Part shown: positions 1,968 through 52,191 of the stretch, one piece after another
Layout: the number at the start of each line of letters is the position of its first letter
How positions within the stretch are numbered: the stretch's first letter is position 1
Source: a candidate division FCPU426 bacterium
Lineage (GTDB): Bacteria > Oederibacteriota > Muellerivitia > Muellerivitales > Muellerivitaceae
Direction of reading: 5' to 3'
Assembly (NCBI GenBank): GCA_003152075.1
Contig: PLZG01000067.1
Coordinates: forward strand, 1 to 52,396
Length of the DNA: 52,396 bases
Position numbers and translations under genes: made by a program
The notes under the pieces: model-generated
Seen by the model: the letters and a program-made list of their open reading frames with translations, nothing else
What the model was told of the DNA's origin: nothing
The model's database searches: none

Positions 1968-2879
1968 ATGACATCAGCCGAACGCAAGGAAGCCATCAGC
2001 GCTTACATGTTTATCACGCCATTCCTATTGGCGATGATTTTCATCACGGGCGGCCCGGTGTTGGCGGCCTTCGGCCTTTCTTTCTGTAAGTGGGACATCC
2101 TGACCCCCATCCAGTTCGTGGGTCTCGACAACTACAAGGAAATGTTTTTCGGGGACCCGCGCTTTTGGAAAGCTCTATATAACACGGCCTATTTCACCTT
2201 TCTGTCGGTTCCTGTCGGAATGGTCCTTTCCATTATCGTAGCCATGCTCATGAACCAAAAAGTTAAGGGCATTGCCATTTACAGGACGATTTATTACCTT
2301 CCTTCGGTCCTGGGCACGGGGGTAGCGGTAGCGGTTCTCTGGAAATGGATTTTCAACGCCGATTCGGGTCTGCTGAACTACTTGATATCAATATTAACCG
2401 GCATTCCCATGTCCGAATGTCCCAAGTGGCTGGCCAGCGAGTTTTGGAGCAAGAACGCTCTGGTCATCATGAGTTTCTGGGGCGTCGGCGGCGGAATGAT
2501 TATTTATCTGGCCGGACTTCAGGGAATTCCCACTACGCTTTATGAAGCCGCTGAAATCGACGGGGCTAACCGTTGGCAGCAATTCTGGACCGTGACCCTA
2601 CCAGGCCTTTCGCCGATCATTTTCTTCCAATTGATTATCACGCTGGTAAATTCCTTCCAAATTTTCAACCAGGTTTACGTTATGACCGATGGGCTTGGCG
2701 GCCCAGCCGATTCCACCCTGGTCATGGTGCTTTACATTTATCAAAAGGCGTTTAAGTATTACCAGATGGGTTATGCCTCGGCCCTGGCCTGCATCTTGTT
2801 CGCCGTGATTCTGTTGGCAACCTGGCTTCAGTTCAAGTTTTCCAAGTGGGTTTATTACGAAGGCGAATTGAGGAAATAA
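1968..2879 (+). CDS. CUT1 sugar ABC transporter permease (MalF/UgpA type)
   Basis: Inner-membrane permease of 303 residues with about six hydrophobic segments. The cytoplasmic EAA loop that docks the ATPase is seen near residues 190-210 (EAAEIDGANRWQQF). The start ATG is 10 bases after the binding-protein stop, with GGAGAAG as ribosome-binding site. It forms an operon with the binding protein and the second permease, and pairs with the latter as a heterodimeric channel. The substrate cannot be read from sequence; the GH3 neighbour and the xylan-related genes further down suggest a plant oligosaccharide. Confidence 0.93.
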   Translation: MTSAERKEAISAYMFITPFLLAMIFITGGPVLAAFGLSFCKWDILTPIQFVGLDNYKEMFFGDPRFWKALYNTAYFTFLSVPVGMVLSIIVAMLMNQKVKGIAIYRTIYYLPSVLGTGVAVAVLWKWIFNADSGLLNYLISILTGIPMSECPKWLASEFWSKNALVIMSFWGVGGGMIIYLAGLQGIPTTLYEAAEIDGANRWQQFWTVTLPGLSPIIFFQLIITLVNSFQIFNQVYVMTDGLGGPADSTLVMVLYIYQKAFKYYQMGYASALACILFAVILLATWLQFKFSKWVYYEGELRK

Positions 2880-2881
2880 CA

Positions 2882-3793
2882 ATGGATTCCATCAACGACA
2901 ACTTAACGGTCAGTTCACCCAACGGGTTTTGGGCTAGTAAACGCCGCACGGAAAAAATCACCAAGATTTTCACAACTATTGTTCTTTCGATCGGCGCGGT
3001 CAGTATGATCTTGCCCGTTATCTGGATGCTCTCGACTTCCCTCAAAACTCCCACCGAGGTTTTCGCCGTGCCGCCGATCTGGATTCCCCATCCCCTGCAT
3101 TTCGAGAATTACCCCAAAGCCTGGACGATTAACAATATGTACATTAGCGAAGGAATCACCTTCACTACTTACACCATCAACACCCTCATCATCGCCCTTT
3201 CGGGTTGTGTGGGTGTCACCCTTACCTCCTCGTTGGTGGCTTTCGCCTTCGCGCGCCTGAGGTTTCCGGGCCGGGGCCCGTTATTCATTCTTTGCCTGGC
3301 TACCATGATGATTCCCACCCAGGTCACCATGATCCCGACCTTCATCCTTTTCAAAAGTATGGGTTGGTATGACACTTACTATCCTCTGATCGTTCCGGCC
3401 TTCCTGGGCGGTGGCGCCTACAACATTTTCCTCATGCGCCAATTTTTCATGAGTATTCCCTATGAGATGGACGAAGCGGCCAAGATTGACGGCTGTACCA
3501 ACTTTGGGGTTTACTGGCGTATCCTTCTTCCCCTTTGCAAGCCCGCCCTTACAACCGTGGCGGTCTTTTCCTTCGTTTGGAACTGGAACGACTTTATCAA
3601 CCCCTTGATTTACCTGGATTCCAACAGCAAAAAGACCTTGGCTTTGGGTCTGACCAACTTCGTTTCCCTTTATGGCCAGGATTACCATTTGCTCATGGCG
3701 GCTTCCTTGTTGATCGTCATCCCCCTGGTGGTCATGTTCCTTATGGGCCAGAGGTACTTCATCCAAGGTATCGCGACAACAGGATTGAAATAG
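2882..3793 (+). CDS. CUT1 sugar ABC transporter permease (MalG/UgpE type)
   Basis: Second inner-membrane permease, 303 residues, with about six membrane segments and the EAA loop near residue 195 (EAAKIDGCTNFGVYW). I chose the ATG at 2882, two bases after the preceding stop, rather than an in-frame start at 2846 that would overlap the upstream gene by 34 bases. The protein begins MDSINDN and reaches its first membrane segment after about 35 residues, usual for MalG-type proteins. It completes the three-gene transporter. Confidence 0.93.
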   Translation: MDSINDNLTVSSPNGFWASKRRTEKITKIFTTIVLSIGAVSMILPVIWMLSTSLKTPTEVFAVPPIWIPHPLHFENYPKAWTINNMYISEGITFTTYTINTLIIALSGCVGVTLTSSLVAFAFARLRFPGRGPLFILCLATMMIPTQVTMIPTFILFKSMGWYDTYYPLIVPAFLGGGAYNIFLMRQFFMSIPYEMDEAAKIDGCTNFGVYWRILLPLCKPALTTVAVFSFVWNWNDFINPLIYLDSNSKKTLALGLTNFVSLYGQDYHLLMAASLLIVIPLVVMFLMGQRYFIQGIATTGLK

Positions 3794-5165: not shown

Positions 5166-5246
5166 AACCACCAAGGCACCAAGACACCAAGAAAAGCGAA
5201 AAGAAATATCTTTGCCTTTCTTGGTACCCTTTGTGTCTTGGTGGTT
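5166..5246. repeat. Family A palindromic repeat, copy 1 (metK-ahcY)
   Basis: Left arm carries three ~8-9 base units (ACCACCAAG, GCACCAAG, ACACCAAG). The right arm is its imperfect reverse complement, ending CTTGGTGGTT. The centre contains TTTGCCTTTC, the reverse of a GGCAAA box seen in other copies. It fills almost the whole gap between metK and ahcY and would form a long RNA hairpin in their joint transcript. Confidence 0.85.
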
Positions 5247-5267
5247 CAAATTTTTTGGAGGAATTGA

Positions 5268-6605: not shown

Positions 6606-6719
6606 AACCCTCGCTCCTTGCGGGAGAGGGTATACCGACCATTTATTTATCTTTTAGGTGGTCGGCATTATGCCAATATCATTTTGGATGGATATCCAAA
6701 ATTGGCATAGGGTGAGGGG
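6606..6719. repeat. Family E repeat (CCCTCGCCCC type), solo copy split by an insertion
   Basis: The 6606-6632 half (ACCCTCGCTCCTTGCGGG, then AGAGGGTA) and the 6708-6719 half (TAGGGTGAGGGG) together reconstitute the ~36 bp sequence that flanks the DUF559 gene at 11911-12327. Here the copy is alone, without a gene, and interrupted at its TA by 77 bases. Confidence 0.75.
6631..6709. mobile_element. 77-bp hairpin insertion flanked by TA (MITE-like)
   Basis: The family E repeat is interrupted between 6632 and 6708. The TA is present on both sides (6631-6632 and 6708-6709), while intact copies have one TA or similar dinucleotide there. The insert has two imperfect hairpins: CCGACCA/TGGTCGG (6635-6665), and one pairing ATGCCAAT with ATTGGCAT (6670-6708). 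TA duplication is the signature of IS630/mariner-type insertion. No coding capacity. Confidence 0.5.
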
Positions 6720-6766
6720 TGGTACACCGCGAAAAAACCACCCATGAACTGGGAAGCTTGTTGTAA

Positions 6767-11910: not shown

Positions 11911-12327
11911 ACCCTCGCCCCTTGCGGGAGAGGGTAGGGTGAGGGGTAGCCCTGGAAAAATCTCCCAAAGCCTTTGCCAGAAACCTACGGCGTAATCAAA
12001 CTGAGGCGGAAAAACGGGTTTGGAGACATTTGCGTTCCCGGGAGTTCCAAGGAATAAAGTTTAGGCGGCAGCAACCGCTGGGGCCGTATATCGCTGATTT
12101 TTGTTCGCTTCAAAAGAAATTGATTATTGAGTTGGATGGTGGACAAGACGCCCAAAAGAAAGAAAAAGATTCTAAGAGAACAGAATATTTAGAAAAATCA
12201 GGCTATCGGGTAATCCGTATTTGGGATAATGAAGTCATCAATAATTTGGAAGGTGTTTTGGAATACATACGGCAACAGATTTTAACTTCACCCCTCACCC
12301 CGACCCTCTCCCGCAAGGGGCGAGGGG
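11911..12327. mobile_element. DUF559 cassette bounded by near-perfect inverted repeats
   Basis: Left end 11911-11947 and right end 12290-12327 are inverted copies of one sequence. Both contain CCTCGCCCCTTGCGGG, then AGAGGGT, then GGGTGAGGGGT, differing only by A versus CG in the middle. Each end is itself a hairpin (CCCTC..CCC/GGG..GAGGG). The single gene inside encodes a DUF559 endonuclease-like protein. A solo copy of the end sequence occurs at 6606-6719. No target duplication is evident. The cassette separates xylG from the rest of its operon. Confidence 0.7.
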
Positions 12328-12338
12328 GTAAAAAGTGA
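12030..12338 (+). CDS. DUF559 / Vsr-like PD-(D/E)XK endonuclease domain protein
   Basis: Small nuclease-fold protein related to the very-short-patch repair family. Recognisable motifs are FRRQQPLGPYIADF, IIELDGGQ and GYRVIRIWDNEVINN, giving the acidic Asp/Glu of the PD-(D/E)XK core. The TTG at 12030 is the first conventional start codon. However, the family-typical N-terminal helix (NLRRNQTEAEKRVWRHL) is encoded in frame upstream from about 11982, and the frame is open back to 11943. Either a CTG (11952) is used or the start has been lost. His of the usual DGGQHA is Asp here. The last ~18 residues (SPLTPTLSRKGRG) are translated from the right inverted repeat, and the TGA overlaps the next start. 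The role is unknown; the flanking repeats suggest mobility. Confidence 0.78.
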   Translation: MRSREFQGIKFRRQQPLGPYIADFCSLQKKLIIELDGGQDAQKKEKDSKRTEYLEKSGYRVIRIWDNEVINNLEGVLEYIRQQILTSPLTPTLSRKGRGGKK

Positions 12339-23613: not shown

Positions 23614-23722
23614 ACCACCAAGGTCACCAAGTACACCAAGAACGGCAAAAAGCAAAAGATTGAATAGTCTAAGAATAAAATGTTTGAGTTTTTCTTGGTG
23701 CTCTTGGTGACCTTGGTGGTTA
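23612..23722. repeat. Family A palindromic repeat, copy 4
   Basis: Left arm GAACCACCAAGGTCACCAAG then TACACCAAG starts at the stop codon of the preceding gene. The right arm ends GACCTTGGTGGTTAA. Unit ACCAAG is used three times in both arms, with the insertion of a T (GGTCACC) matched by an A on the other side. The inner box ACGGCAAAAAG is at 23642-23652. Confidence 0.88.
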
Positions 23723-52059: not shown

Positions 52060-52155
52060 TGAACCACCAAGGCACCAAGGGCACCAAGAAAACCGAACAA
52101 AACCAAAGATTTTAGATTTTGTCTTCCTTGGTGCCCTTGGTGTCTTGGTGGTTCA
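52060..52155. repeat. Family A palindromic repeat, copy 6 (rnhA-rnpB)
   Basis: Left arm TGAACCACCAAGGCACCAAG then GGCACCAAG. The right arm CCTTGGTGCCCTTGG then TGTCTTGGTGGTTCA. 28 or so paired positions, one of the best-preserved copies. It lies between the RNase H gene and the rnpB promoter region. Confidence 0.88.
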
Positions 52156-52191
52156 TAGTCTTGGTCGCTGGATTTTAAGCCTCTTTGGCCC

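What the first reader, a model, noticed from the sequence alone, without database searches (positions are those of the whole stretch)
6606..6719. Insertion within a repeat: 77-bp hairpin element flanked by TA in a solo family E copy
Seen: the repeat matching the DUF559 cassette ends is split, with TA on both sides of an insert made of two imperfect hairpins. Removing the insert restores the intact repeat. Known: TA duplication marks IS630/mariner insertions and their MITEs. This gives relative dating: the solo repeat existed first.
Basis: partly seen in the sequence, partly recalled or inferred. Interest (0 to 1): 0.55.

Follow-up and report, generated by a model that had tools for sequence, protein, structure and literature searches.

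The report
Hairpin element nested inside dispersed repeats
A 77-base insert in this bacterial genome is one copy of a small hairpin-forming mobile element that is found mostly inside other repeated DNA, at fixed points and facing one way, which makes it an unusual repeat-within-a-repeat rather than the ordinary type first suggested.

Summary
Window 6631-6709 holds TA, 75 bases folding into two hairpins, and TA, splitting a family-E repeat; without one TA and the 75 bases a standard E repeat remains. BLAST finds 10 such copies in this genome and 2 in its sister species (an FCPU426 MAG), all 12 at the same point of E in one orientation, while 61 E sites in this genome match an empty-site pattern.

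A covariance model of the insert finds 54 copies in 5 of 45 genomes of the phylum (a lower bound), most in a sister genus. I read all 54: 49 sit in dispersed repeats of four different families (E 12, C 32, B 3, D 2), 5 in sequence I could not assign. Flanks are TA/TA in 10 of 12 E copies and CA/CA in all 37 C, B and D copies; both sides agree in 52 of 54.

Insertion stands; IS630/mariner is not supported: no IS630-type hit over cut-off, mostly CA flanks, one-way insertion. It behaves like REP-targeting IS110/IS1111 elements but is tiny and non-coding; its recombinase is unknown and IS110 genes were not searched. 'Repeat first' holds for the family, not proven at this locus.

The parts
6607..6630 (+). 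left arm of the host family-E repeat (ACCCTCGCTCCTTGCGGGAGAGGG)
6631..6632 (+). left flanking dinucleotide TA (the TA of the empty site GGGTAGGG)
6633..6707 (+). 75-base core of the double-hairpin element; this copy begins TACC where most begin TGCC, and ends GGCA
6632..6668 (+). hairpin 1 (stem of 9 positions, 8 paired in this copy, 19-base A+T-rich loop)
6670..6708 (+). hairpin 2 (stems of 6 and 9 pairs separated by a one-sided bulge)
6708..6709 (+). right flanking dinucleotide TA (second copy)
6710..6720 (+). right arm of the host family-E repeat (GGGTGAGGGGT)
11911..11947 (+). empty family-E repeat, left end of the DUF559 cassette (comparison copy)
12290..12327 (-). empty family-E repeat, inverted, right end of the DUF559 cassette

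Best explanation
The insert is a copy of a small non-coding mobile element (core 73-103 bases, 75 here) made of two adjacent hairpins. It lies directly after a YA dinucleotide (TA or CA) with the same dinucleotide again on its right, in one orientation, and in 49 of 54 copies the target is a fixed point in another dispersed repeat. Shown: the copies, their fixed position and orientation, the doubled dinucleotide, the conserved and co-varying hairpins, and several different host repeats. Inferred: that the element moves; that a recombinase supplied in trans recognises the hairpins and prefers palindromic repeats, in a one-way reaction around a dinucleotide like that of REP-targeting IS110/IS1111 elements; and that, once inside a host repeat, it is partly carried along when that repeat multiplies (as the C-family data suggest).
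For: Copies: 10 in the genome by BLAST, 2 in the sister species, 54 in 5 of 45 genomes of the phylum by covariance model. Same point and orientation in E: 12 of 12; C 32 of 32 and B 3 of 3 face one way relative to their host (read by eye). Hosts: E 12, C 32, B 3, unassigned 5 of 52; L181, one of those five, and L196 lie in a further repeat, D; L195 is unassigned; total 49 of 54 hosted. Dinucleotide the same on both sides in 52 of 54. Taking out core and one dinucleotide gives regular host units, e.g. CACCAAGAA-CACCAAGCT-CACCAAG (L145) and GATTGC-CA-CGTCGC (L169), and insert-free copies of C and B were seen. Insert and host divergence are unrelated in E (Mantel r 0.00, p 0.48, n 12): window and L002 have identical 35-base hosts but inserts 10% apart; window and L005 have hosts 37% apart but inserts 6% apart. 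Hairpins: 94.4% of cells paired, 18 of 24 pairs with changes on both sides against a shuffled mean of 6.5 (0 of 500).
Against: No longer copy with the same ends around a gene was seen in this genome at BLAST level; three weak partial hits look like ordinary sequence. In C hosts insert and host do correlate (Mantel r 0.33, p 0.007, n 32), so many may be passengers of a spreading repeat, which lowers the number of independent insertions. No locus shows an empty repeat in one species and a filled one in another; relatives lack the repeat at the loci tested. One subtype of C does not restore exactly: filled copies give GTACACAAAGG where an empty copy reads GTACACGAAGG. Five copies have no recognised host and four of these sites are not hairpin-like; several hosted sites (L169, L174, L009) fold no better than random places do. 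Passages on IS1111 and on one IS110 relative report insertion without duplicated bases. No complementarity to targets in 18 of 54 copies tested.
Confidence: 0.7

Rival explanations
1. It is a MITE of an IS630/Tc1-mariner element that duplicates TA on insertion.
For: 10 of 12 E copies have TA on both sides and the other two have one changed end; short, non-coding, with short inverted ends TGCC/GGCA in most copies.
Against: 41 of 54 related copies have CA/CA and none TG/TG; 12 of 12 E copies face one way; 49 of 54 lie in repeats; PF13358 hits over the cut-off in 0 of 7 genomes, three below it, of which one was identified (rve_3).
Confidence: 0.07
2. It is a non-autonomous element moved as single-stranded DNA by a Y1/HUH transposase (IS200/IS605 or RAYT type), which recognises end hairpins and inserts one-way 3' of a short target.
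For: Two hairpins with a conserved one-sided bulge, one-way insertion, short motif YA on the left. Y1 hits in 5 of 8 genomes, among them G002 (13) and G001 (3).
Against: No Y1 hit in this genome or in G006, both of which carry copies; no insert-like hairpins in the 12 Y1 loci examined; both flanks switch together between TA and CA, which a left-target rule alone does not predict (inference).
Confidence: 0.2
3. It is a DDE-type MITE with 5'-TG...CA-3' ends and a 2-bp duplication, for example of an IS30-like element, a family that I recall as preferring palindromic targets.
For: Core begins TG and ends CA in most copies; 2-bp direct repeat; palindromic hosts.
Against: Inverted ends of only about six bases and one-way insertion, unexpected for symmetrical ends; IS30 genes were not searched for.
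Confidence: 0.12
4. The filled repeat is a longer version of each host repeat that spreads as one unit; the insert itself moved only a few times.
For: In C hosts insert and host correlate; relatives lack the whole repeat plus insert at the loci tested.
Against: Four host families and five unassigned sites need separate entries; in E, insert and host divergence are uncorrelated; the insertion point in two C subtypes differs by one base (by eye).
Confidence: 0.2

Closest known systems
ISPpu9 (IS110/IS492 family) and ISPpu10 of Pseudomonas putida, inserted in REP sequences
   Same: All copies at one point of a palindromic dispersed repeat, with a 2-bp direct repeat on both sides (PMC1525189: abstract and Results section read; PMC8450116: passages read). 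PMC8450116 also reports three orphan copies of a small RNA gene of ISPpu9, flanked by the element's boxes and apparently not in REPs.
   Different: Those are transposase-coding elements; the present one is mostly 79 bases, shows no gene, and uses at least four different host repeats.
IS621 and other IS110/IS1111 elements (bridge RNA / seekRNA)
   Same: One-way insertion around a short core, REP elements as natural targets (PMC11208160 and PMC11187229: passages read).
   Different: No recombinase found or searched for here, no guide complementarity in cis; the passages of PMC11187229 report no extra or duplicated bases for IS1111 members and for the IS110 relative ISEc21.
Bacterial MITEs and IS200/IS605-type hairpin elements
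   Same: Short, non-coding, multi-copy, hairpin-forming (MITE review PMC10969869: passages read; IS200/IS605 features recalled).
   Different: Nested mostly in other dispersed repeats at a fixed point; no match in Rfam, phage or plasmid records; the strict pattern scan of genome-contig hit only the sister MAG.

Membership tests
IS630/Tc1-mariner MITE | TA target duplicated | tested here: not met
   TA/TA in 11 of 54, CA/CA in 41 of 54
IS630/Tc1-mariner MITE | IS630-type transposase in the genome or family | tested here: not met
   PF13358 over the cut-off in 0 of 7 genomes; below it in G000, G001, G002; the G000 one is rve_3
IS630/Tc1-mariner MITE | both orientations at TA sites | tested here: not met
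   12 of 12 E copies in one orientation; weight depends on how many are independent
IS200/IS605 (Y1) derivative | end hairpins, one-way insertion | tested here: inconclusive
   hairpins and one-way insertion present, but hairpins reach the very ends and short inverted ends exist
IS200/IS605 (Y1) derivative | Y1 transposase present in genomes with copies | tested here: not met
   0 hits in G000 and G006; hits in G001, G002, G007
IS110/IS1111 derivative | one-way insertion at a fixed site with a shared dinucleotide at both ends | tested here: met
IS110/IS1111 derivative | DEDD recombinase with matching ends in the genome | not tested
IS110/IS1111 derivative | guide RNA matching target in cis | tested here: not met
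   longest shared words 4-6 bases, reached by at least 42 of 200 shuffles each; 18 of 54 copies tested

The most novel reading that the evidence does not exclude
A minimal, protein-free element of about 79 bases lives as a parasite of parasites: it has switched between different families of palindromic repeats in different genera of one bacterial family, seeking the folded repeat rather than its sequence, and riding on each host repeat's own multiplication.
Probability: 0.33. Interest if true: 0.7.

Novelty: new variant of a known kind. Interest (0 to 1): 0.5.

Why it matters
Insertion sequences that target REP palindromes are known, but they carry their own recombinase. A tiny hairpin element that nests at fixed points in four different repeat families gives a natural record of how a recombinase chooses a target when the target's sequence changes but its repeat character does not, and a handle for finding that enzyme in an uncultured phylum.

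Tried and rejected
IS630/mariner MITE: set aside on flanks, orientation and lack of a transposase over the cut-off. Autonomous partner by partial match: three weak hits in this genome (E 0.28-1.8) were fetched and look like ordinary sequence, by eye. Known RNA family: no Rfam match overlaps the insert; those beside it are far below gathering scores. Phage and plasmid records: no match. Viral contigs: 0. Genome contigs pattern scan: 2 stretches, both of a candidate division FCPU426 MAG (nzgw216) whose contig lengths equal those of G001; the pattern was strict and would not have met the copies of the sister genus. Cis guide RNA: no complementarity in 18 of 54 copies. Orthologous empty site: looked for at the window locus and at the loci of L048, L004 and L003; the relatives read lack the repeat, or in G001 at the window locus carry different E-like sequence at a contig end; for L006 and L009 no flanking orthologue was found. 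Folding of empty sites (16 of 54 sites): z about -6 in the three C sites and -3.8 and -5.3 in D; 0 to -4.3 in B; -0.7 to -3.0 in E; -3.1 in L178 and 0.1 to -0.7 in the other four unassigned sites; 40 random places gave median -0.4, 10th percentile -2.1, lowest -8.8. Literature: 14 papers hold the word DUF559, none in title or abstract (listing); searches on small dispersed repeats, REP targeting (46), FCPU426 (47), IS110 and REP (64), nested MITEs (65) and IS30 (75), listings only, showed no description of this element; most subscription papers are not in that library.

Full report
What is there. At 6607-6720 a family-E repeat is split by 75 bases plus a second TA. The stretch folds into two hairpins in the insert, better than 200 of 200 shuffles.

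Copies in this genome and its sister. BLAST with the region finds 10 copies of the insert in this genome and 2 in G001; none in the other 57 of 59 genomes at that sensitivity. All 12 lie between a GAGGG-like left arm and a GG(G/A/T)(T/C)GAGGG right arm (CGGTGAGGG in L008) of an E-type repeat, in one orientation. Empty E sites by pattern (up to 3 mismatches): this genome 61 (reversed-pattern control 0), G001 50 (control 10), G002 114 (control 10), G006 22, G007 16, G004 5. So in this genome filled copies are the minority, and E exists in genera where no filled E was found.

Insert and host in E. Hosts (35 bases) of the 12 differ by 0-54%, inserts by 5-32%; the two matrices are uncorrelated (Mantel r 0.00, p 0.48; for the 10 of this genome r -0.05, p 0.47). 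Host types include plain E, variants with CCCTCTCCC or CCTTCTCCC left arms, and a long-loop form with an extra hairpin module. The hosts are short, and conversion between repeats cannot be excluded.

Relatives in other repeats. A covariance model of the 12 over 45 genomes of the phylum gave 54 matches at E <= 0.01 in 5 genomes: G000 11, G001 3, G002 16, G006 6, G007 18; the search used strict filters and scored only part of the candidates, so this is a lower bound. I read all 54 with flanks. Sorting 52 by motif gave E 12, C 32, B 3, unassigned 5; by eye, L181 and the later-read L196 share a further repeat, D (GCCACAGAT...ATCTGTGGC), leaving L151, L177, L178, L180 and L195 unassigned. C is the tandem CACCAAGNN family and its variants, present without insert in the window near 5169-5255, 23616-23721 and 52060-52162; B is the GATTGCCACG...GCAATGAC repeat. 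The names C, B and D are mine.

The doubled dinucleotide. 41 of 54 copies read CA/CA, 11 TA/TA; L008 reads TG/TA and L010 TA/TT. Because CA is not its own complement, CA on both sides is a direct repeat, not part of the inverted ends. None reads TG/TG. Taking out the core and one dinucleotide gives regular host units in the copies shown; in one C subtype the result differs by one base from an insert-free copy.

Structure. Across 53 aligned matches (45 distinct; one is an antisense match at L009; L195 and L196 not included) the stems keep standard pairs in 94.4% of cells, with 18 of 24 pairs changed on both sides at least once (shuffles 6.5; slid controls 2-6). One pair of hairpin 2 is unpaired in 27 rows. 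The alignment was fitted to the model, which leans towards the structure, and palindromes can correct themselves during replication, so this shows maintained hairpins, not necessarily an RNA.

Mechanism. One-way insertion at a fixed point of palindromic repeats with a dinucleotide on each side is the pattern reported for ISPpu9 and ISPpu10 in REPs (PMC1525189; PMC8450116) and fits the one-way, core-centred insertion of IS110/IS1111 elements (PMC11208160; PMC11187229), though the last reports no duplicated bases. IS110 genes were not searched here. Y1 hits are missing from this genome and G006; PF13358 gives no hit over the cut-off in seven genomes, and the weak hit here is an rve_3 protein. 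In C hosts insert and host correlate (r 0.33, p 0.007), so there the element probably also spreads as a passenger. I think both routes operate.

Dating. Relatives lack the repeat at the loci tested (window, L048, L004, L003), so 'repeat first' is a family-level inference, not shown at 6606-6719.

Noticed in passing
window 11911-12327: A DUF559 open frame (stop-to-stop 11943-12338, PF04480 138 bits) lies between inverted E repeats, like a small insertion sequence; this genome has only 2 DUF559 matches but 61 empty-pattern E sites.
   Followed up: partly
L011, about 2577-2677, minus strand: E also occurs as an inverted pair of about 100 bases that folds into an almost perfect hairpin (-69 kcal/mol with RNA energies), resembling REPIN-type doublets.
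   Followed up: partly
L048, about 3362-3473 (G001): This E copy carries a second, different multi-hairpin stretch in its first loop in addition to the insert.
   Followed up: no
L005, L009, L008 1358-1482; also L096-L099: A CATAGGGG...CCCCTATG hairpin module occurs inside long-loop E repeats and also elsewhere without E in G000, G004 and G005.
   Followed up: no
L009 2986-3069: One copy has its second hairpin enlarged, the bulge being matched by five extra bases; looks like template-directed correction of an imperfect palindrome.
   Followed up: no
G002 and L053 (G001): G002 has 13 Y1-transposase matches, some of them fragments and several in frames of 315-345 aa, against none in this genome; a 315-aa relative in G001 has a sub-cut-off DnaA-C-like match in its tail.
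   Followed up: no
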